In this document: piece by piece, positions 3,713 through 14,909 of the stretch
Layout: every line of letters starts with the position of its first letter
How positions within the stretch are numbered: position 1 is the first letter of the stretch
Source of the DNA: Bartonella sp. F02
GTDB taxonomy: Bacteria > Pseudomonadota > Alphaproteobacteria > Rhizobiales > Rhizobiaceae
Assembly: GCF_026929975.1 (NCBI RefSeq)
Contig: NZ_JANHOK010000003.1
Location: 205,621-269,620 of the forward strand
DNA length: 64,000 nt
Reading direction: 5' to 3'
Notes under the pieces: model-generated
What the model saw: the letters and a program-made list of their open reading frames with translations, nothing else
What the model was told of the DNA's origin: nothing
The model's database searches: none
Made by a program: the position numbers and the translations under genes

Positions 3713-4861
3713 TTAAATTTGTTTATTCATTTTAAAAAAATATTTAAATGATATTATTAGATTTTGCAAAACGTCAATTTTATAGTTTTTAAAAAGTATA
3801 AAAAAGAGAAGAATGCTTATTCCTATTGGTAGGATATAGAGTATAGGGATATAAAAAAGGTTATTTTTTGCTTTTTCAGCAAAGAAGTATGCTATCCAGT
3901 AAATGAGAAAAGAGAAAGCAATAGCAAAAAAATTTATAGATATGTGTGTTTGTCTATAGGGACGTGCATTTCCTGCTGTTACTAATGCAATTAACGCAAA
4001 CACAATAGAATAGAACCATTCTGTGAGTCGACGGTGAAATTCAGCTTGATACTGGAGTGGGTTCTGTTGATAATAGGGATCATTTGGATCAGGATGAGAT
4101 AAATATGAAAGGGGTCTATCTTTAGGGTAAATAATAGGAGTTCCATTATTAGGTATAAATTCACTTAGATTAAAAGTATAAGAACTGAACTTAATAATTG
4201 AAACACTATCATTTTGGTGATTGACTCTTTCTATTTCTCCATCATTGAGAACGAGAAAGCTGCCATTTTTATTATTAATAACCGCTCCTTTCGTGGCATA
4301 ATAAAAAAGATCAACTTGAGGGTCGCGTTGATCTGCAATGAAAAGACGCTCAATATTCCCGTCGGGGGTTCGTTCACCAATTTCTATATAGAGATTTTTT
4401 GTTAACTCTTGAAAACTGCCTTCGTTAATAAAGAGGCTAATGAGATCGGAGTGAGCACTTGCCAGCATATGCCGCATATTAAGACGCGCTTGAGGAGTAA
4501 CAAAATTGGCGATGGAAAATGATACAAGTGAAGCAAGGATAGCTAAAAGAAAAATTGGTTTCCAGACAACATTTTGGGGCATGCCAGAAGCGTTGATAAT
4601 CGTTAACTCTGAATCTTGATTCATAATTGAAAGAATGGTTATAATAGCAATCGCTAGTGAAAATGGAATAACGAGAGAGATAACCGAAGGAAGCAAGAGA
4701 GACGAAAAATACAAAGCTGTTAAAAAGGTTTGACCACTTGTTGTGAGAAAGTTAATGCGTGCAAGGATTTGTACTATCCAGCTAATACTGATTGCAGCAA
4801 TTACAACAGCACTGAAAAGAGTGAAAATGCGCTTTAAAATGTATAATTCAGTAATCCGCAT
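3713..4861 (-). CDS. lptF: LPS export permease LptF
   Basis: LptF is the partner of LptG in the inner-membrane LPS exporter. I place the start at the ATG at 4861 (MRITELYILKRIF), giving 382 residues. An upstream in-frame start at 4918 would add a 19-residue tail that the family does not have. Hydrophobic segments lie near residues 10-35, 45-70 and 80-105. A periplasmic domain follows, then C-terminal membrane segments starting with the WFYSIVFALIALVTAG stretch. First gene of the lptF-lptG-lptD operon. It is divergent from holC, as lptFG is from pepA-holC in E. coli, but pepA itself is absent here. Confidence 0.93.
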   Translation of the reverse strand: MRITELYILKRIFTLFSAVVIAAISISWIVQILARINFLTTSGQTFLTALYFSSLLLPSVISLVIPFSLAIAIITILSIMNQDSELTIINASGMPQNVVWKPIFLLAILASLVSFSIANFVTPQARLNMRHMLASAHSDLISLFINEGSFQELTKNLYIEIGERTPDGNIERLFIADQRDPQVDLFYYATKGAVINNKNGSFLVLNDGEIERVNHQNDSVSIIKFSSYTFNLSEFIPNNGTPIIYPKDRPLSYLSHPDPNDPYYQQNPLQYQAEFHRRLTEWFYSIVFALIALVTAGNARPYRQTHISINFFAIAFSFLIYWIAYFFAEKAKNNLFYIPILYILPIGISILLFFILFKNYKIDVLQNLIISFKYFFKMNKQI

Positions 4862-5166
4862 GGATGAGAAAGCACCTTTAAGTTTAAATTTTGATGCATT
4901 GTACTTTAATATAAGCAAAATTCAGAAATTATTTTGATGTATATTATGTGTTTCTATTAGAATGATAAAAGATCACTAACCCATTCTAATTTAATTTATT
5001 CCAGATTACATTCTTTTTTGATAATGATGCACAGAGAAATATTTTAAAAAGAGCAGAAGATATATTTTTTATTTATCTTAAATAAGAGAGATTTTGTCTC
5101 TCATTTTATTTATTTTGAAAAGATATGATATGCAAAGTTGATAAGGAATGATGAAAGATAGAATTA

Positions 5167-5610
5167 ATGGATATTATTTTTTATCATTTGATGCATTCAA
5201 GATTTGAAGATGTTTTGCCGACACTTGTGGAGCGCGCTTTGGCTCGTTTTGGAAGAGTGACCATACAGTGTACCAGTAACGAGCAACGTGACGTTATAGA
5301 TACTCGTTTGTGGGTTTATTCTGATGAATCTTTCATTGGGCATGGAACGGAATGTGATAAATATTCAAGTCTTCAGCCAGTATTTTTGACAACAGGATGT
5401 GAAAATCCGAATGATTCAAAGGTGCGTTTTCTCCTAGAGGGAGCTATTTGTTCGGATATTAGTTGTTATCAACGACTTGTTATTCTGTTTGATGATTGTG
5501 ATGAAGAGCAATTAAATCTCGCTCGTTCTCAATGGAAGGAATATAAAGCACAAAATTATGATCTCACTTATTGGCAGCAAACTAAAGATCGCTCTTGGAA
5601 AAAACTTTGA
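5167..5610 (+). CDS. holC: DNA polymerase III chi subunit
   Basis: The chi subunit bridges the clamp loader to single-strand DNA-binding protein during replication. The 147-residue protein matches HolC: the N-terminal DIIFYHL strand, the region VLPTLVERALARFGRV, a WVYSDESFIGHG motif typical of alphaproteobacterial chi, and a C-terminal helix ending WKKL. The family is about 140-150 residues. The gene is normally coupled to pepA; here only an AT-rich 248-bp spacer without pepA lies upstream. The ATG at 5167 has only a weak purine-rich ribosome-binding site. Confidence 0.9.
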   Translation: MDIIFYHLMHSRFEDVLPTLVERALARFGRVTIQCTSNEQRDVIDTRLWVYSDESFIGHGTECDKYSSLQPVFLTTGCENPNDSKVRFLLEGAICSDISCYQRLVILFDDCDEEQLNLARSQWKEYKAQNYDLTYWQQTKDRSWKKL

Positions 5611-5771
5611 TGTAGATAGCGTCTTTTTTTCGATTTTCATCAGGACAGTGACAATAATTAAGTCAGATTTTTTTTATTTTGGAAAGCTCAGAAGAAAACT
5701 GGTAGGTATTTGTTGTGATTTTTAAAACTGATAAGAATATGCTTTACGATCAAAATATAAAAACGGAATAA

Positions 5772-6041
5772 ATGATGGTCTTTGATAGAATTTTGCTTAT
5801 TTTGTGGGCAGTTATGTTGTCTTTTTTTTGTGTTTCATGGTTGGGGACGACACATATCTTATCTCAAATGTTCTCTGTTATTTATATTAATACCATTGTA
5901 GATATTTTGTTTTTTTTACTTTGTGTGCTGTTTGCTGGAATATTATGGTGGAATATTCCTCAACCTATGCCTTTAAAAATGAAACTGGCGGCATCTCTAC
6001 CGCCAGCACTTGTTATTTTTTTTTCTTTATTGGTTAGTTAG
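5772..6041 (+). CDS. Small hydrophobic membrane protein of unknown function
   Basis: The 89-residue product is almost entirely hydrophobic, with about three membrane helices (roughly 5-23, 35-57 and 70-88) and a short charged loop near residues 62-71. Two ATGs (5772, 5775) are possible starts, after a weak purine-rich stretch. Its last 8 bases overlap the tail of the MFS gene on the other strand. I do not recognise a named family and infer no function. The length and helix pattern favour a real gene over chance. Confidence 0.6.
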   Translation: MMVFDRILLILWAVMLSFFCVSWLGTTHILSQMFSVIYINTIVDILFFLLCVLFAGILWWNIPQPMPLKMKLAASLPPALVIFFSLLVS

Positions 6042-7323
6042 ATATTTCTTGATCTGTAAAACCAACAAAACAAATCAAAGAAATGATAGAAGAAAACAGA
6101 AGATAATAACCAACATAAGCAATGCCGAAATTTTGCACCAAATATTCGGCGACATAAGGTGCAACAGATGCGCCTGCAATTCCCGCCAAATTAAAGACTA
6201 CGGATGAGCCGGTGTATCGAATTTCTGTTGGAAATGGTGAAGCAAGAACAGCACCGAGCGGACTATATGTGATACCCATAAGCGATAAACCAATGACAGA
6301 CATCATAAAGATACCCGTAATTCCAGAAGCAAGGAAATAAGGAATTGCAAAAGAATAAACACCCGTGATGATAGTCACCCAAATCATTAACGTTCTTCGT
6401 GAAATACGATCAGAGATTTTTCCAGTCAAAAGGGTGAAAATACCACAAAAAACAGCACCGATCATTTCTACTTCGAGAGCTTGATTGAATGATAACTTAA
6501 GATGATTTGTTGCATAACTTAATAAATAAGCGGTGACCAAATAAAACAAAGCAAATGTTAACATTCCTGCAAATGTGCCAAGAAATAAAACGCGTGAGTA
6601 TTTAGAAAACACGTGTACAATGGGTATTTTAACGCGCTCTTCGCGTTTAAGCGTTTTTTTGAATTCAGATGTTTCATTAATTGACATACGAACCCATAAT
6701 CCTACAATCATGAGAACAGCAGAGAAAATAAATGGAACACGCCACCCCCATGCAAAAAGTTGATCTTGGTCAAAGAAGTTCACTATACCTAGATAGGCAG
6801 CAATAGATAAAAATAATCCAATTGGAACGCCTAATTGTGGAAACATTGCATACCAACCACGCTTTTCTGGTGGTGCATTTTCAGTTGCAAGCAAAACAGC
6901 TCCACCCCACTCACCACCTAATCCAATTCCCTGACCAATACGGCATATGGTTAAGAGAAGCGGTGCTAAGAAACCAATTGTTTCATAAGTAGGAAGAATA
7001 CCAATAATAACTGTTGAAAGACCCATTGTCAAAAGAGCTGCTATAAGCGTCGCTTTTCGTCCAATTTTATCACCAAAGTGTCCGAAAATAATTGAACCGA
7101 AGGGACGAGAAAAAAAAGCAGCACCAAAAACAAGAAAAGATTGCAAAATAGCAAGCTGCTCGTTTTGAGCTGGAAAAAATAAATAAGGAAATATGAGAGC
7201 TGCGGCCGTTCCAAAAACATAAAAATCGAAATATTCAATTGTTGTTCCAATAAGGCTTGCAAATAAAATTCTACCAGGAGAGTTTCCTTTATTTGCGTTT
7301 TGTTCTTTTACGCTTATAGACAT
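6034..7323 (-). CDS. MFS transporter, metabolite:H+ symporter (ProP/KgtP-like) family
   Basis: The 429-residue protein has twelve membrane segments and features of the MHS subfamily of the major facilitator superfamily. These include the N-terminal IGTTIEYFDFYVFGTAAAL signature, the loop 2-3 motif GHFGDKIGRK, and the RIGQGIGLGGEWGGAVLL segment. Members import small organic acids or osmolytes (shikimate, alpha-ketoglutarate, citrate, proline/betaine) with protons; the substrate cannot be read from sequence. It is a single-gene unit on the minus strand, tail to tail with the small membrane protein. A purine-rich stretch precedes the ATG at 7323. The 1-kb spacer upstream is shared with the divergent first autotransporter. 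Confidence 0.85.
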   Translation of the reverse strand: MSISVKEQNANKGNSPGRILFASLIGTTIEYFDFYVFGTAAALIFPYLFFPAQNEQLAILQSFLVFGAAFFSRPFGSIIFGHFGDKIGRKATLIAALLTMGLSTVIIGILPTYETIGFLAPLLLTICRIGQGIGLGGEWGGAVLLATENAPPEKRGWYAMFPQLGVPIGLFLSIAAYLGIVNFFDQDQLFAWGWRVPFIFSAVLMIVGLWVRMSINETSEFKKTLKREERVKIPIVHVFSKYSRVLFLGTFAGMLTFALFYLVTAYLLSYATNHLKLSFNQALEVEMIGAVFCGIFTLLTGKISDRISRRTLMIWVTIITGVYSFAIPYFLASGITGIFMMSVIGLSLMGITYSPLGAVLASPFPTEIRYTGSSVVFNLAGIAGASVAPYVAEYLVQNFGIAYVGYYLLFSSIISLICFVGFTDQEISN

Positions 7324-8349
7324 GAATGAGTTTCCCTCTGTATTATTTATAAAATGAGCGAATTATGATTATAAAAATTTAAAACTAATGTCGAGTCAGT
7401 ATTGCTATGATTTAAATGTAATTAAAATAATATTCACAGAGTGTGATCAACGTAGAAGATTATTCTACCAATAAATGATGTCCTTTTGATAAAATTGGGT
7501 CAAGAATTGTTAATATTGACATCAAATTGACAATTTTTTGCAAAGTTATGATTGTATTACAACGTTCAATCTTTTTTAGATGTTAATTCGTATGTTTACT
7601 GTGTTCTTCTAGATTAGTTTGATGAAAAAGCTCGTTCTATCGATGGTAGAGCTAATAGAAATATGATTTATGTTGAAAATGGATAAAGTAAAATAATCTT
7701 GGTACTTGTCTCTTGAAATTGCTTACAGATTAGATGTTTTATTGCTTATGAATGTTATTTAAATTTGTTTTGAAGCATATGATTTGTTTTTAGGCATACG
7801 AAAAGAGAAATTATCGATAAAGAATTAAGAACATATTCAGTATCTGTGCGTGTACTTTGAAAGAAAAATACAGAGTGCTGCGATGGAATCTGTTGAAAGC
7901 TAATCAAGTTGAGATTATGGATAACGCTGACCTCTTAATGATTTGTTCAATAGAAGTTTTTTAGAAAGTGACCAAAATTATCTTGCAGTCAAGCAGAGAT
8001 AGCGTTGACAGTGTAGATATATTCTGTGTGTTCTTTCATAATTTCTTATGATGATTTATTCCCTAGATGATTGGAGAATAATTGGGAAGGTGCTAGAGAG
8101 GTATTATTTTAAATAGATTGTATGTATTGTTATATTTTGTATCTTTTTATTTTTGGGAAGATATCATTAAAATGGTATACGCATTATTCTTTTCTCTCCT
8201 TTAAGATAAATAATTGAATAAAAAATAAAGAAAAAAACCTTTATTTTTATCAAATCGTGGAAAAAAATACATCTTGCAGTTGAAATATTGCATTGCACAA
8301 CTAATTACGTTCAATGTCTTTTCAGGCATGAAATAGTAAGGATATGGTT
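7324..8349. other. One-kilobase intergenic region
   Basis: This AT-rich region separates the MFS gene from the divergent autotransporter. It holds no intact reading frame of credible coding quality. One stretch (7795-7964) may be a gene remnant and is listed separately. The promoter of the autotransporter should lie in the last few hundred bases, but I could not pick a convincing -35/-10 pair. Confidence 0.6.
7795..7964 (+). pseudogene. Possible remnant of a nitroreductase-like gene
   Basis: Two short frames in different phases resemble consecutive parts of an oxygen-insensitive nitroreductase. The first, 7795-7857, reads KREIIDKELRT, like the K-x-I-x-D-x-E-L start of the family. The second, 7857-7964, reads LKEKYRVLRWNLLKANQ and then ADLLMICS, like the L-R-E-K-x-R ... 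A-N-x-Q ... A-S-H segment. A frameshift and stops separate them and no other part of the gene is recognisable. The match is by eye and weak. Confidence 0.25.
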
Positions 8350-11115
8350 ATGCAATATAAATGGAAATTAAGTTGTTGGGCGCTTCTGATTAGTAGCTCT
8401 TTTGTGCAAAATGCAAATGCAGATGTGGGTGGAGAAAGTAATTTTTGCCGAAATTTCATCTTAGATGAGAATAAGAAAACGGGCACAAAAATTCGTACGA
8501 GCATGTTTTATAATGAAAATCTTGAGAGCACAGAAGCAGAGGTCGAAAAACCGAAACAATGTATAAGAATTAAAGCGTTTGGTAAAGATGGAACAGTAAG
8601 TACTCCACATGAAACAGTGACAATAGAATCTTCTAGTTTAAATCTATTGGGTAATATAGGTTATCATATTGAGAGTTATCAACATAAAGATGGCAATGAA
8701 CTTAAGATAGTGCGGAAATATACTGAAGAAATTCCTGCTGACAGCGAAAATAGTGATAGAGTTTCCTATAAGAATGGTATTTTGACAATTTCTGGAAAAG
8801 ATCCTGTAATTGCACAGCTGACAAATAACTCAACAGTGTATTTTAATGAGGTCAGGAATAATGATAGATTTTATGTTTATGATAAACTAGATAAAAATAG
8901 TAAACCTGAGGGGAAACCAGGAGTGATAGGGTATACAAAAGTTGGGCAGGGTGGAAAAATCTATATTTTCGGGGGAGGTATTAGCAAAGAAAATATCATT
9001 GAAAAAGGGGGCACAGAAGTTGTTCAAGCTTTCAATGGGACAAAAAGTATTTCCACAGGTTCTACTATTAAAGCAGGAGGAGAGCAGTCAGTTCAATATG
9101 GAGGGGCTGCCACCGATGCTATCATTGAGGGTGGTCAGCAAATTGTTTTTGGACAAGATGAAACAAAAATCATAAAAAGTTCAGCTATAGGCACGAAAGT
9201 TTATGGTGAAGGTGATGTATTCGGACAACAAAGTATATATGATTATGGAACAGCTATTGATACAATAATTGGAAAAGGAGGCATACAAGTTATTAGCAAG
9301 GAGGATGAGAAGGCAGAAGTTGGTGGGACTGCAATAAGAACCACAGTTTCTGATGATGGAAGACAGTATATTGTCGCAGGTGGAACAGCTATAGAGACTA
9401 CTTTAAAGGACAATGCTGTTCAAGCAGTATTTTCTGGAGGGCGTGTGAGCCAACTCGTCATTAATGATAATGCTCAATCATGGATACATTCTGGGGTAGA
9501 CTCGAAAGAAGGAATAACAGTTAACAATTCGGGAAAGTTATATCTTTATGCTGGTATTAATTCTGATGAGAGTGAAAATAACACCGAAGTTGATAAACTG
9601 GTGTTAAATGGAACAAATACAAAATTGTATCTTGTTTCTAGTGAATTTGATGGGAAAAGTTCTGTAATTAGGAATTTAAGTGGGGATGGTAGCGTCATTT
9701 TTATTTCTACTGATACTAATCCAGATTTAATTTCTAATGATGCCGATTCAAATCAGCCTCGCGTCTATGTTAGAGATTCGCAAGAAGTTGATAATTCAAA
9801 TAGCGACGAGAGTATTATTTCTACGAGTGCTCCTTTCCATTACTCACGTCTTTACGTAGGGAGTCTTTCAGGTCGTCTAAATTTTCTCATGAATACTTCT
9901 ATTGCAGAGGGTCGTGGTGATAGTATTTATATAAGGGATGGAAGCGGCAATCATACTATCAGTTTTTCTGATACTGGAGCTGAAATTACAGACCCTCGGT
10001 CACAGACTCTTAATCTAATTTATGATAAAAGCGGCGGGGCGCACTTTTCTTTGGTGGGATCATCTGGGGAAAAAGTGAGTGCTATTGATGGTGGAACCTA
10101 TATGTACGATTTGCATAAAAAGACGAATGCAGGTGAAACAACGTGGTATTTAGGTGTAGAAACAGAGTATAAAGAAGGTGTTGCGTATCCTGATTTTGTA
10201 ACTAGTCCTTCAACAGATGCTATTTTATCTATGGTTGTGGCTCCTGAACTTGTTTTTCATAATGAATTGCAACATGTGCGTTCTGGAAGAAAAATTGCAA
10301 ATAGAGATAAGAAGAAAAATACTGCTCTATGGACATATGCAATTGGAAGTAAGGAACATATTGCTACGGGACGTACCAATTTCAAACTTGATCAGACAGG
10401 TGTAATGCTGGGTATTGATTGGCTAGGTGAATTTACCAGTGGCAATTTTTATATTGGTGGTTTTGGAGGTTACGACCAGGCTCGTATTGCCCATGATCGA
10501 GGTGGCATCAGTAAGATGAATATCTATAGTATAGGAGCTTATGCGAGCTATTGGCATAATAGTGGGTGGTATGTAGATGGCGTTTTGAAATATAATCATT
10601 ATCAAAATAATCTTAGAGCCGTTTCAACAAATGGTTTGGCTATTCAGGGAGATTATAAGCAATGGGCGGTGGGTACATCAGTTGAAGCAGGTTATCGTTT
10701 TAAGACTGAGCAAGATCTTTGGGTACAGCCTTATGCTCAATTAACTTGGTTACGTGTTGAAGGTAAAAAAATAAAGCTTGAAAATAATATGATTGGAGAG
10801 ACTAATCCATCAATTTCATTACGAAGTGAAGTTGGGGTATCTATAGGTCATGAGCTTAACTTGAATACTGATGTTGCATTAACAGCTTATGCAACAGCGG
10901 CTTGGTTACGTGAAAATGTAAATAACAATCATACAACAATCAATGAAAAAAATCGGTTTGTTACTGATTTGTCTGGCAATGCTGGTAAATTGGGAGTTGG
11001 TCTGAATAGTTTAGTCAATGAAAATTTAACACTTTATGCGGAAGCTAATTATCTCAGAGGACAAAAGAGAAAACAGTCTCTGCAAGGAGTTTTAGGTGTA
11101 CGCTATAGTTTTTAA
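8350..11115 (+). CDS. Autotransporter (type Va) with AIDA/Ag43-like passenger repeats, paralogue 1
   Basis: Classical autotransporter of 921 residues from the preferred start. The ATG at 8350 lies 8 bases after TAAGGA; the ATG at 8344 is too close to it. A signal peptide is cut after NANA (about residue 24). The passenger has an N-terminal region with two cysteines (near 33 and 71), then about residues 198-380 of short repeats of the G-G-x-Q-x-V-x-x-G-G-x-A type forming a beta-helix. An Asn/Ser-rich region and a pertactin-like stretch follow. The translocator begins near residue 620 (STDAILSM) and ends in YSF, as outer membrane barrels do. Bartonella use such proteins in adhesion and include BafA, a secreted mitogen for endothelial cells; whether this gene is its counterpart cannot be told by eye. 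A terminator follows at 11246. Confidence 0.9.
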   Translation: MQYKWKLSCWALLISSSFVQNANADVGGESNFCRNFILDENKKTGTKIRTSMFYNENLESTEAEVEKPKQCIRIKAFGKDGTVSTPHETVTIESSSLNLLGNIGYHIESYQHKDGNELKIVRKYTEEIPADSENSDRVSYKNGILTISGKDPVIAQLTNNSTVYFNEVRNNDRFYVYDKLDKNSKPEGKPGVIGYTKVGQGGKIYIFGGGISKENIIEKGGTEVVQAFNGTKSISTGSTIKAGGEQSVQYGGAATDAIIEGGQQIVFGQDETKIIKSSAIGTKVYGEGDVFGQQSIYDYGTAIDTIIGKGGIQVISKEDEKAEVGGTAIRTTVSDDGRQYIVAGGTAIETTLKDNAVQAVFSGGRVSQLVINDNAQSWIHSGVDSKEGITVNNSGKLYLYAGINSDESENNTEVDKLVLNGTNTKLYLVSSEFDGKSSVIRNLSGDGSVIFISTDTNPDLISNDADSNQPRVYVRDSQEVDNSNSDESIISTSAPFHYSRLYVGSLSGRLNFLMNTSIAEGRGDSIYIRDGSGNHTISFSDTGAEITDPRSQTLNLIYDKSGGAHFSLVGSSGEKVSAIDGGTYMYDLHKKTNAGETTWYLGVETEYKEGVAYPDFVTSPSTDAILSMVVAPELVFHNELQHVRSGRKIANRDKKKNTALWTYAIGSKEHIATGRTNFKLDQTGVMLGIDWLGEFTSGNFYIGGFGGYDQARIAHDRGGISKMNIYSIGAYASYWHNSGWYVDGVLKYNHYQNNLRAVSTNGLAIQGDYKQWAVGTSVEAGYRFKTEQDLWVQPYAQLTWLRVEGKKIKLENNMIGETNPSISLRSEVGVSIGHELNLNTDVALTAYATAAWLRENVNNNHTTINEKNRFVTDLSGNAGKLGVGLNSLVNENLTLYAEANYLRGQKRKQSLQGVLGVRYSF

Positions 11116-11485: not shown

Positions 11486-11546
11486 AAAAAGGTTATTTAG
11501 GAGTAGCGGGATATTTGTTTAATTATTAATGCATGGAGTAAAGATC

Positions 11547-14500
11547 ATGCGGTACAAATACAAATTAAGCTGCTCTATAATAACGATTAGTGCTCTTCTT
11601 ATACAAGCTACAAATGCAGATCAGAATGCAGATAGGCAGTTACAAATTGTAACAGTTAATGATAATGGAACAGTGGGGAGTAATACTGCACTGATTACAC
11701 GTATTGATAGTCATAATGGTGGAATAACAGCTATAAAAAGAAACATCACGATTCGAGATGGTGGAGTGGAAATTGTTGAGAATGGTGGAACTTCAATGCA
11801 CGCTCATATTGAAAGAGGTGGGATGCAAATCGTTACACGTGGAGGAAGAGCAATTTCAACTAACATTAGGGGTGGTGTTCAATTTGTTTTCGAGGAAGAG
11901 ACTGCAGATCTTACAAATACAAGTAAACTCAGTACTGCTTATAACGCTGTAGTTAATGGTTCAGATGGAATAACAGGGCAGCAGAATGTGTACGATGGTG
12001 CTCATGTTTGGCATACAATAGTTCAGAAAGGAGGAGAGCAAAATCTTTATAAAGTGCGTAGAACAAAAGGGGGTGAAGCAACAGGAACTAGAGTTGGTAA
12101 AGGGGGTAAACAGCATGTTTTAGCAGGAGGAATAGCCACTAATGTTACTTTGGAAAATGGAAGTAAACAAATAATATATCCTGATGGGATGGTTATAAAT
12201 TTAACGATTGAGAGTAATGCCAATTCATGGGTGTATGGTGGTACAAAATTAGGAGAAACTGTAAACGTCAAGAGTGGAGGAAATCTCTTTTTATACGCTG
12301 GTGATGCTGCCAGCTCTATTGTAAGAGAAAAAATTCTTTTTAATAATCGTTCTGTTGAAGAATTATTTTCTGTTGGTGTGCAAAACAATGAAAATCTCTC
12401 TAAAATTTATATTGGGAATTTAACGGGGAATGGAGGAACTGTTAGTTTTTTTACTATTCCGTATGATCCTCGTCATTTGACAGTTTATATTAAAGATCTT
12501 TCAGGTCAGGTAAATTTTCGTTTTAATATTAGCAATGTGGGAAATCGCAGCGATCATTTGTTAATTGATCAGAGTTCAGGTGAGCATACAATCAGCGTTA
12601 TGGATAGTGGTGTTGAGTTTTCAAAAAATCTTTCACAAAGACCTAATCTTATTGCAGATATTCTTTTAATAACTGATAAAAGTAATAGTGAAGGAGCTAC
12701 TTTTACTTTAGTTGATCAATTGAGTAGAAAAATTAATACTGTAGATGGAGGAGTCTATACGTATGGTTTGAAAAAAGTGAAAAAAGTACAACAAACTACA
12801 AAAATCACTTCTCCAAAAATGGAAAAAGTTCCAGCCAATAGAAATACTACACAGTGGTATTTGAGTTTAATTTCTGATAAGTCACATAATTCGGATTTAT
12901 CTTCACGAATACGGATTACGGAATCACAGCCCCCCATACTCGTAAGGACTGAATCTGTTGGTACAAATTCTCGATCATCACAAGATAGAGGGACATCATC
13001 TTCTCGTCCAAGAAGAAGAACTCCAAGGCATTTAACAGAAAACTCTCAAAATTCACCTTTTTTAACAATTTCACCTTCAGATAGTCAAACGAGTGAAACG
13101 CAAAGTCGGAGTCGTCGTCCCCGGGATGTTAATAATGATGGAGCATTATTTCCTTTTCTTGCTACTTCTTCAGAGAAGCCTCCCGTTGACATTCGAGAAA
13201 CTCAAACTGCTGAAACAAATCAAGAGCAATCTAATCCATCACAGCGTCGGAAGCGTTCTCCTCGGCATGCAACAATGAATCTCGAACCATCCATTCCTAT
13301 CTCTTCAACTTCTGTTTCGTTGGAAGGTAATACACCAGAACCTCAAAGAAATCAGCCTTCTGAAGCCAATCAAGAACAATTGGTTGCTGTTGCTTCAGTT
13401 GATACATCTTTTGAAAAACAAGATTCGAATCCGAGTCGTGGTCGAAGACGGTCACGTCGAGGCATAAGTCATACGCCGTCAAATTCTTCTCTTCCAGCTG
13501 ATATACCTACAGATGATGATTCTTCTGAAGTCTATCAGGATCAATCTCAAACTGATGTTTCTTCAACAAAGTTACATTCAGAATATCAGGCAAATGAAGG
13601 AAACCAGAGTGATCGGGAGGAGGATTCATATGCAATTATTCCACATCCAGAAAGTGAAGTTAATCATGTAACATCTCAGCAGCGAAGTCGTCGGCATTTA
13701 GAGTCGAATGATGATGGTTCAAGATCTTCAGATTCTGCATTTGCAGAGATGCAATCCGATGAACCAAAAAAAGATGTTGAAGGAGGATCGGCTAAACTTT
13801 CTCTTAGGGCATATCGAAGAAATTATACAAAGAGTCGAGATTCTCAGAGACGTAGTCAGCAACGTTCAGAACCGAGTGATCATGCTTCTGTTTCTTCAGA
13901 TGCTCAGTCTCCACAAGATCATGTTTGGGAGGATAAAGATCAAAATCAGTTTTTTCACTATGGAGATCAAAGTTTAGAAAATCTTAATTTTTTAACCACT
14001 CCTTCGACAGATGCTATTCTCTCTATGGCTGTAGCTCCTAGCCTTGTTTTGCATAATGAATTGCAGCATGTGCGCTCTGGAAGAGGAATTGTAAACAGAA
14101 ATAAAAGAAATGCTTCTCTATGGGTATATACTCTCAAGAGTACGGAAAAAGTTGCTACAGGACGCACACATTTTAAACTCGAACAGACAGGTATAATGTT
14201 AGGTGTTGATCGAATAAGTGAACTGACAAATGGAGGAGAGTTTTATATTGGTGGTTTTGGAGGATATGATCAAGCACATATTGTTCATGAACGCGGTGGT
14301 GTCAGTAATATGGGCATTTATAGTCTTGGAGCGTATGTGAGTTATTTTGATAATAATGGGTGGTATTTAGATAGTGTTTTGAAATATAATTATTATCAAA
14401 ATAATCTTAAAGCTGTTTCGACAAATGGTATAGATATTCAAGGAAATTACGAGCAACGAGCAGTAGGAACATCGTTTGAAGCAGGCTATCGTTTTACAAC

Positions 14501-14909
14501 AGAACAAGGAACTTGGGTGCAACCTTATGCTCAAGTAGCTTTATTAAAGGCTGAAGGTAAAAATATCAAGCTTTCAAATGACATGGTTGGAGATATCAGT
14601 CCAGCGACTTCATTACGCAATGAAGTTGGATTGTCTATAGGACATGAATTTAGTTTGAGCATGAATAATTTGTTAACAGCTTACGCGACGGTAGCGTGGT
14701 TGCGTGAGAACGTTAATGATAATTATGCGGTACTTAATAAAGGATATAAGTTTGTGACTGATTTATCAGATAATGCAGGAAAATTAGGTGTTGGTCTAAG
14801 AAGTTCTGTGAATGAAAAGTTAGTATTTTATATGGAAGCTAATTATGTCAAAGGACAGAAGAGAAAACAATCTTTTCAAGGTGTTTTAGGTCTACGTTAT
14901 AGTTTTTAA
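11547..14909 (+). CDS. Autotransporter (type Va) with arginine-cluster linker, paralogue 2
   Basis: 1120-residue autotransporter. The ATG at 11547 lies 8 bases after GGAG and gives MRYKYKLSC, matching MQYKWKLSC of paralogue 1; an ATG at 11529 is in frame but has no ribosome-binding site. The signal peptide ends at ATNA (about residue 24). Residues about 60-240 carry G-G-x-Q/E-x-V repeats of the AIDA/Ag43 type, followed by a beta-helix end. Between WYLSL and STDAILSM, where paralogue 1 has about 20 residues, there is a hydrophilic insertion of about 365 residues (12882-13988). It is rich in Ser, Gln, Glu and Asn with six Arg clusters. The barrel (from about 14112, ending RYSF) is closely similar to that of paralogue 1, pointing to tandem duplication. 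A surface adhesin or secreted effector role is inferred from the class. Confidence 0.9.
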   Translation: MRYKYKLSCSIITISALLIQATNADQNADRQLQIVTVNDNGTVGSNTALITRIDSHNGGITAIKRNITIRDGGVEIVENGGTSMHAHIERGGMQIVTRGGRAISTNIRGGVQFVFEEETADLTNTSKLSTAYNAVVNGSDGITGQQNVYDGAHVWHTIVQKGGEQNLYKVRRTKGGEATGTRVGKGGKQHVLAGGIATNVTLENGSKQIIYPDGMVINLTIESNANSWVYGGTKLGETVNVKSGGNLFLYAGDAASSIVREKILFNNRSVEELFSVGVQNNENLSKIYIGNLTGNGGTVSFFTIPYDPRHLTVYIKDLSGQVNFRFNISNVGNRSDHLLIDQSSGEHTISVMDSGVEFSKNLSQRPNLIADILLITDKSNSEGATFTLVDQLSRKINTVDGGVYTYGLKKVKKVQQTTKITSPKMEKVPANRNTTQWYLSLISDKSHNSDLSSRIRITESQPPILVRTESVGTNSRSSQDRGTSSSRPRRRTPRHLTENSQNSPFLTISPSDSQTSETQSRSRRPRDVNNDGALFPFLATSSEKPPVDIRETQTAETNQEQSNPSQRRKRSPRHATMNLEPSIPISSTSVSLEGNTPEPQRNQPSEANQEQLVAVASVDTSFEKQDSNPSRGRRRSRRGISHTPSNSSLPADIPTDDDSSEVYQDQSQTDVSSTKLHSEYQANEGNQSDREEDSYAIIPHPESEVNHVTSQQRSRRHLESNDDGSRSSDSAFAEMQSDEPKKDVEGGSAKLSLRAYRRNYTKSRDSQRRSQQRSEPSDHASVSSDAQSPQDHVWEDKDQNQFFHYGDQSLENLNFLTTPSTDAILSMAVAPSLVLHNELQHVRSGRGIVNRNKRNASLWVYTLKSTEKVATGRTHFKLEQTGIMLGVDRISELTNGGEFYIGGFGGYDQAHIVHERGGVSNMGIYSLGAYVSYFDNNGWYLDSVLKYNYYQNNLKAVSTNGIDIQGNYEQRAVGTSFEAGYRFTTEQGTWVQPYAQVALLKAEGKNIKLSNDMVGDISPATSLRNEVGLSIGHEFSLSMNNLLTAYATVAWLRENVNDNYAVLNKGYKFVTDLSDNAGKLGVGLRSSVNEKLVFYMEANYVKGQKRKQSFQGVLGLRYSF

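What the first reader, a model, noticed from the sequence alone, without database searches (positions are those of the whole stretch)
12882..13988. Arginine-cluster insertion in the second autotransporter, with furin-like motifs
Paralogue 2 carries about 365 extra residues between the beta-helix and the barrel, at a point where paralogue 1 has about 20. The insertion is Ser/Gln/Glu/Asn-rich and holds six arginine clusters, at about 13005, 13104, 13242, 13434, 13680 and 13815-13868. The first five match R-x-[RK]-R: RPRR, RSRR, RRKR, RGRR/RSRR and RSRR. Some flanks repeat (N-Q-E-Q, N-P-S, S/T-P-R-H), so it looks grown by degenerate repeats of about 35-80 residues. Two hypotheses are host furin-type cleavage that frees passenger pieces, and heparan-sulfate binding on endothelial cells. 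I know of no described autotransporter of this design, but could not search.
Basis: partly seen in the sequence, partly recalled or inferred. Interest (0 to 1): 0.72.

Follow-up and report, generated by a model that had tools for sequence, protein, structure and literature searches.

The report
Repeated arginine release-linker in Bartonella BafA
This gene is the BafA-family autotransporter of a Bartonella species, and the segment between its secreted part and its membrane anchor, predicted to be disordered, holds at least three copies of an arginine motif (RxxRH) found in most of its long-linker relatives, which is likely where a protease cuts the blood-vessel-growth factor free.

Summary
In detail: gene 2 (11529-14909) has a 377-residue linker with six R-x-[RK]-R motifs, far above chance, where gene 1 has 16 residues. 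The framing changes. Gene 2 is the BafA orthologue (Bartonella angiogenic factor A, a VEGF-like secreted passenger) by family model, passenger tree and locus. Its linker is no private insertion: an R-x-x-R-H-[LVAMI] core occurs in 111 of 125 long Bartonella linkers, 0 of 35 short ones and 0 of 22 outgroup ones. The window has three strict copies plus a weaker fourth match to a profile trained without it, and the longest linker seen; ruminant-type Bartonella, Bartonella sp. A05 and B. clarridgeiae also have extra copies. Net charge is higher before the motif than after in 79 of 79 linkers of proteins under 1030 aa. In B. henselae a cut at the motif predicts 50.8 kDa; about 51 kDa is published, and I found no mapped cut site in the papers seen. 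I infer an Arg-directed release site. Furin specifically is doubtful: the commonest core is RPPRHL, B. henselae released passenger with serum but no host cells named, and a BafA2-like variant keeps the motif although BafA2 strains are not processed.

The parts
11529..14909 (+). gene 2: BafA-family autotransporter, 1126 aa (probable start M7 at 11547)
   Evidence: NF040482 831 bits against a cut-off of 700; 46-row BafA clade, SH-aLRT 99; ndk-pgsA-uvrC follow the array in 7 of 7 relatives compared
11547..11618 (+). likely signal peptide (aa 7-30)
   Evidence: sequence MRYKYKLSCSIITISALLIQATNA; 24 residues, as implied for B. henselae BafA, whose passenger construct starts at residue 25; no signal predictor run
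11619..12863 (+). passenger: AIDA/pertactin-like, predicted beta strands
   Evidence: PF16168 and PF03212 over cut-off; AlphaFold model
12864..13994 (+). Arg-cluster linker, aa 446-822, predicted disordered; longest of 182 distinct linkers compared
   Evidence: pLDDT under 50 for aa 450-820
13005..13055 (+). motif copy RPRRRTPRHLTENSQNS (strict): best match to the family profile, primary predicted cut after R500
   Evidence: 31.0 bits, 0 of 2000 shuffles; predicted passenger about 51 kDa
13101..13151 (+). Arg cluster QSRSRRPRDV: R-x-R-R but no match to the family profile
   Evidence: 1.1 bits, about half of shuffles as high
13242..13292 (+). motif copy QRRKRSPRHATMN (strict)
   Evidence: 14.2 bits, 1 of 2000 shuffles
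13437..13487 (+). RGRRRSRRGISH: weaker profile match without the RH
   Evidence: 8.9 bits, 44 of 2000 shuffles
13671..13721 (+). motif copy TSQQRSRRHLESN (strict)
   Evidence: 15.0 bits, 0 of 2000 shuffles
13794..13895 (+). sixth Arg cluster (AYRR..SRDSQRRSQQR): not the family motif; low-confidence helix aa 757-775
   Evidence: -4.9 and -3.6 bits
14001..14081 (+). predicted alpha-helix leading into the barrel, aa 825-851
14115..14906 (+). autotransporter beta-barrel; best solved fold match BrkA
   Evidence: PF03797; 3qq2_B E 7.4e-17, TM 0.91 over the target
8344..11115 (+). gene 1: paralogue with a 16-residue linker and no Arg motif; outside the BafA clade

Best explanation
Gene 2 is the BafA-family autotransporter of this Bartonella, and most of its Arg clusters match a family-wide linker motif that is likely the site where an Arg-directed protease releases the VEGF-like passenger. 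Shown: the orthology, the motif's conservation, its repetition here, and the drop in charge across it in relatives. Predicted: disorder of the linker. Inferred: after translocation the linker lies outside the barrel; a trypsin-like host or serum protease (plasma kallikrein, plasmin or factor XIIa, which cut the comparable Neisseria alpha-peptide) or an unknown Bartonella protease cuts after the R-x-x-R; the freed passenger keeps a basic tail while the acidic stalk stays on the barrel. Several copies would give several cut points, raising the chance of release or yielding passengers of graded length (about 51 to 76 kDa). The protease is not identified.
For: BafA family model, passenger tree, downstream gene order. 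R..RH[LVAMI] in 111 of 125 long linkers, 0 of 35 short Bartonella linkers, 0 of 22 outgroup linkers; shuffling predicts 0.69 of 127. A profile trained without the window matches four places in it above shuffles, the fourth weakly. In B. henselae residues 25-494, ending RPPR, weigh 50.8 kDa, against a reported supernatant band of about 51 kDa, which the authors ascribe to proteolytic processing (PMC11705867 section 7). Four of four BafA-sized B. henselae proteins looked at (P0101, P0102, P0127, P0134) keep RPPRHLR[DE] at 54-99% identity to BafA1 residues 1-500. Net charge is higher before than after the motif in 79 of 79 linkers of proteins under 1030 aa. Where first- and last-gene barrels have been homogenised, the shared tract starts 5-78 aa after the last gene's motif, never before it (14 informative of 18 pairs). 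Serum proteases cut the IgA-protease alpha-peptide (PMC8677018 section 20).
Against: P0127, the variant that best fits BafA2 (54% to BafA1; the paper gives 53%), keeps the motif although BafA2 strains showed no ~50 kDa band: the motif alone is not enough, or something else differs. Native B. bacilliformis passenger ran at about 60 and 37 kDa (PMC9044958 passages), whereas a cut at its Arg cluster predicts 47 kDa. 14 of 125 long linkers lack the strict core, and both B. bacilliformis BafA linkers have an Arg cluster without it. The charge drop is not clear in the long paralogues (17 of 31). Gel sizes cannot separate a cut at 494 from one some 20 residues away. Proline before the scissile Arg is, from recall, not ideal for furin or plasmin. 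I saw no mapped cut for any BafA. Related rows are not independent.
Confidence: 0.5

Rival explanations
1. The Arg clusters are binding elements (heparan sulfate, extracellular DNA or matrix), like the Arg-rich region of NHBA and the IgA-protease alpha-peptide of Neisseria; release happens elsewhere.
For: The segment up to the motif is net positive in 79 of 79 linkers of proteins under 1030 aa; NHBA binds heparin through an Arg-rich region (start of abstract PMC5079597, listing).
Against: The window linker as a whole is net -9; what is kept is a string (RPPRHL in 60, R..RH[LVAMI] in 111 of 127), not just charge; the long paralogues have the motif without a clearly basic segment.
Confidence: 0.25
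2. Passenger is released by Asn self-cleavage inside the barrel, as in EspP/BrkA, and the Arg clusters are secondary or irrelevant to release.
For: Barrel closest to BrkA and Vag8 among solved structures; N843 is conserved in 35 of 40 rows and E844 in 40 of 40; the 60 kDa B. bacilliformis band (such a cut predicts 53 kDa there).
Against: In the EspP alignment the Asn pair that I recall as the cut site falls three residues further, where this family has Q in 36 of 40 rows; such a cut predicts 61.3 kDa in B. henselae against about 51 reported.
Confidence: 0.12
3. The clusters are nuclear-localisation-type signals carried with the passenger, as in the alpha-peptide of some meningococcal IgA proteases.
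For: NLS clusters in a length-variable alpha-peptide drive nuclear entry (PMC4524725 passages).
Against: BafA is reported to act through VEGFR2 at the cell surface (PMC7366657 passages); no NLS predictor was run here.
Confidence: 0.05
4. The window's extra length is neutral expansion of an unconstrained disordered linker; only the first motif copy matters.
For: Copies fade in match (31, 15, 14, 9 bits); the linker alone finds no relative but itself at E <= 0.1; two clusters are not the motif.
Against: Extra copies also occur in the ruminant-type clade, Bartonella sp. A05 and B. clarridgeiae.
Confidence: 0.25

Closest known systems
BafA of B. henselae, B. quintana and B. bacilliformis (PMC7366657, PMC9044958, PMC11705867)
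   Same: Family model, passenger domains, barrel, locus, Arg cluster between passenger and barrel
   Different: Their linkers measure 149, 148 and 56 aa with one such cluster; here 377 aa with three strict copies, a weaker fourth match and two other Arg clusters; function untested here
BafA-family proteins of Bartonella sp. A05, B. bovis, B. chomelii, B. schoenbuchensis
   Same: Two to three copies of the same motif in the linker
   Different: Linkers of 122-254 aa; the window is longer and has more R-x-[RK]-R than any other compared (6 against at most 3)
Neisseria IgA1-protease alpha-peptide (PMC4524725 passages, PMC8677018 abstract and section 20)
   Same: Arg-rich, length-variable segment between passenger and barrel that surface and serum proteases cut
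   Different: Protease passenger; NLS and autocleavage sites; no sequence relation found; no S8 (NalP-type) protease found in this genome
NHBA Arg-rich region (abstract starts of PMC5079597 and PMC5868813)
   Same: Arg-rich stretch that binds heparin and is a target of bacterial and host proteases
   Different: Lipoprotein, not an autotransporter

Membership tests
BafA-family autotransporter | NCBIfam NF040482 over its cut-off | tested here: met
   831 bits against 700; gene 1 passes too (851)
BafA-family autotransporter | Passenger groups with BafA proteins of species where BafA was tested | tested here: met
   46-row clade with B. quintana, B. bacilliformis and presumed B. henselae BafA, SH-aLRT 99; quick tree without bootstrap, long end branch flagged
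BafA-family autotransporter | Locus: array followed by ndk-pgsA-uvrC, BafA gene last | tested here: met
   ndk, pgsA and uvrC follow in 7 of 7 loci compared; the BafA-type gene is the last of the array in 6 of 7 (in L050 a short-linker copy follows)
BafA-family autotransporter | Released passenger activates VEGFR2 | not testable with these tools
   none for this species
Type Va autotransporter | N-terminal signal, passenger, linker helix, C-terminal beta-barrel | tested here: met
   signal by eye only
Furin substrate | R-x-[RK]-R conserved in the family | tested here: not met
   6 in the window, but present in 25 of 127 Arg-bearing linkers
Substrate of a NalP/SphB1-type subtilisin or OmpT-type omptin | Genome encodes an S8 or omptin protease | tested here: not met
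   S8 match in 4 of 71 genomes, not in this one; omptin match in 0 of 71; three frames with trypsin-type domains, HtrA-like by size
EspP/BrkA intrabarrel Asn self-cleavage | Asn at the scissile place of the barrel helix | tested here: inconclusive
   Asn three residues off in the alignment; scissile pair recalled
IgA-protease alpha-peptide homologue | Detectable sequence relation | tested here: not met
   linker search (5942 candidates scored) finds only itself at E <= 0.1

The most novel reading that the evidence does not exclude
BafA is made as a pro-factor: a conserved RxxRHL site in its linker is matured by the host's own Arg-specific proteases, so that a bacterial VEGF mimic with a basic, matrix-binding tail is set free where serum or convertase activity is present; this Bartonella has multiplied the site into a multi-cut release linker.
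Probability: 0.27. Interest if true: 0.78.

Novelty: new variant of a known kind. Interest (0 to 1): 0.55.

Why it matters
How BafA leaves the bacterium is open: the B. bacilliformis paper says the native protein may be processed at other positions than the recombinant, and the B. henselae paper ties failed processing to undetected secretion. In what I saw of the three main BafA papers (sections and passages) no cut site is given. A conserved motif at a charge boundary, at the right mass, names one candidate place to look, and says that the tail length of a construct should be checked when BafA activity is compared between species.

Tried and rejected
Unique insertion: rejected, since Bartonella sp. 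A05 has the same pair (16- and 254-residue linkers) and 125 distinct long linkers exist. Short linker of gene 1 as a loss: not favoured; short linkers are the rule in the outgroups and in the middle paralogue. Omptin and subtilisin as the protease: searched, no match in this genome. Glycosylation by an AIDA-type heptosyltransferase: TIGR04414 gave no match in this genome. First genome-contig scan with the single protein found nothing; an alignment query worked. Linker alone as query found only itself. Strain comparison within the window's species was not possible: its cluster holds one sequence. Not run: disorder, furin, NLS or signal predictors (AlphaFold confidence stands in for disorder), heparin modelling.

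Rows dropped: of 226 frames with a barrel match, 207 had both linker boundaries and lay outside two duplicate loci (L098, L100); 182 distinct ones (differing in length or last 60 residues) were counted. The charge count used the linkers with the strict core, split by protein length (79 under 1030 aa, 31 of 1100 aa or more without the window). The structure job used 40 sequences. In one search, 4 of 18 pairs gave no tract, apparently because of truncated or shifted C-termini. P0127 as BafA2 and genome G023 as B. henselae Houston-1 are inferences (874 aa as published; P0101, 99% identical over 80%, is named B. henselae; the genome length match is recalled). Paper reading: PMC7366657 sections 8 and 23 and passages; PMC11705867 sections 6 and 7 and passages; PMC9044958 passages; PMC8677018 outline with abstract and section 20; PMC4524725 passages; all others search listings only.

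Full report
What is there. Gene 2 (11529-14909, 1126 aa) and gene 1 (8344-11115, 923 aa) are open tandem autotransporter genes, 50% identical in alignment. Pfam finds AIDA, pertactin and autotransporter domains in both. Between passenger and barrel gene 2 has 377 residues and gene 1 has 16. AlphaFold gives pLDDT under 50 for residues 450-820, beta strands before and a barrel after (mean pLDDT 62.5); the barrel's best solved match is BrkA.

What gene 2 is. Both genes pass NCBIfam NF040482, BafA family autotransporter (831 and 851 bits, cut-off 700). BafA is the secreted VEGF-like factor of B. henselae (PMC7366657; sections 8 and 23 and passages read). In a tree of passenger pieces (122 rows, quick IQ-TREE, no bootstrap) gene 2 falls in a 46-row clade (SH-aLRT 99) with the BafA proteins of B. 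quintana, B. bacilliformis and presumed B. henselae, next to Bartonella sp. A05 (91); gene 1 lies outside. Both window genes are flagged for long end branches there. ndk, pgsA and uvrC follow the array in 7 of 7 relatives checked; the BafA-type gene is last in 6 of 7, the exception being L050 (B. rochalimae), where a short-linker copy follows; the MFS gene was matched in 4 of 7. Position was also the argument by which RS02475 was first taken as BafA in B. bacilliformis (PMC9044958 passages).

The linker is a family trait. Among 182 distinct linkers, 125 Bartonella linkers are long (93-377 aa), 35 short (16-56) and 22 come from outgroups (7-50). R..RH[LVAMI] occurs in 111 of 125, 0 of 35 and 0 of 22; any R..R in 125, 2 and 0. 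The two short linkers with Arg clusters are the B. bacilliformis-type BafA orthologues (L065, L099). Shuffling predicts 0.69 of 127 with the strict core; R-x-[RK]-R is in 25 of 127 (shuffled mean 9.9), RPPRHL in 60 of 127 (shuffled 0). By a looser pattern, 43 of the 46 rows of the BafA clade carry the motif (labels; the three without are L065, L099 and L050, which have RQRR, RKSR and RPPR). Around the core, contexts from the other proteins favour [RK] two residues before the first Arg, P or S then P between, then L/V, [RS], [EQ], x, Q (contexts were chosen by the core, so only flanking preferences are independent). A profile trained on 111 contexts without the window scores four window sites above shuffles: aa 493 (31.0 bits), 715 (15.0), 572 (14.2) and, weakly, 637 (8.9; 44 of 2000 shuffles as high); the clusters at 525 and 756-789 do not match. 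By the strict pattern the window has three copies. The window linker is the longest (377; next 276).

How it may work. In the 874-aa BafA of genome G023 (length as published for B. henselae), residues 25-494 through RPPR weigh 50.8 kDa, 25-513 (the published recombinant) 52.9, and 25-592 (barrel-helix Asn) 61.3. A ~51 kDa band is reported in supernatant of BafA1 strains, and 80-90 kDa intact plus ~50 kDa in lysates (PMC11705867 section 7); a Strep-tagged ~53 kDa band and passenger-only peptides were found in the first paper (section 8). That fits a cut near the motif better than one in the barrel. For the window the first copy predicts about 51 kDa and the others up to about 76. Net charge is higher before the motif than after it in 79 of 79 linkers of proteins under 1030 aa (medians +9 and -3; 77 of 79 when the last eight residues of the first part are left out), but in only 17 of 31 long paralogues; the window has +6 and -15. 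Where the barrels of the first and last gene of an array have been homogenised (95-100% identical), the shared tract starts 5-78 aa after the last gene's motif, never before it (14 informative of 18 pairs); divergence of the linkers could by itself explain that.

Who cuts. Omptins had no match in 71 of 71 genus genomes, and subtilisin-type S8 none in 67 of 71, this one and G023 included; three frames with trypsin-type domains, HtrA-like by size, are present here. The ~53 kDa passenger was recovered from bacteria in M199 with 10% serum, no host cells named, so endothelial furin does not seem required there, but serum was present. Plasma kallikrein, FXIIa and plasmin cut the Neisseria alpha-peptide (PMC8677018 section 20). 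Hence a serum-type trypsin-like protease is my first guess and an unknown Bartonella protease the second; neither is shown.

Against. A BafA2-like protein (P0127) keeps RPPRHLRE though BafA2 strains lack the cut band. B. bacilliformis bands of ~60 and 37 kDa do not fit 47 kDa. Fourteen long linkers lack the strict core. Rows are related, so counts overstate independence. I saw no mapped cut.

Known or new. The kind is known (BafA; alpha-peptide-like linkers). New, as far as reach (open-licence papers only; listings, and for the main papers sections and passages), are the family-wide linker motif, its charge boundary and its repetition here. The search for 'Bartonella' with 'furin' showed no paper on BafA among the 20 listed of 26. 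A paper comparing BafA family members of cat and rodent species was not held and could bear on this.

Noticed in passing
L097, L055, L058, L044, L048, L057 and others: First and last autotransporter genes of the array have near-identical barrels within a genome (95-100% in 14 of 18 pairs) while four orthologous barrel pairs between species measured 71-78%: concerted evolution, probably gene conversion.
   Followed up: partly
P0018 and P0042 (Bartonella sp. B35(2025)): The last 477 residues are identical, starting within about 8 residues after the Arg motif.
   Followed up: partly
L034 (Bartonella sp. A05), 4168-6915 and 7237-10212: Same two-gene arrangement as the window: 16-residue linker, then 254-residue Arg-motif linker; barrels 90% identical.
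   Followed up: yes
G000:C18:10657-11403: A third autotransporter barrel in this genome, outside the window.
   Followed up: no
window 8344-11115 and 11529-14909: O-heptosylation-type strand-loop-strand repeats (TIGR04415) in both proteins, but no TIGR04414 heptosyltransferase match in the genome.
   Followed up: partly
G036:C4:101506-102201 and G064:C1:19249-19971: Two Bartonella genomes carry a 710-aa frame with a subtilisin-type S8 domain, matched in only 4 of 71 genus genomes.
   Followed up: no
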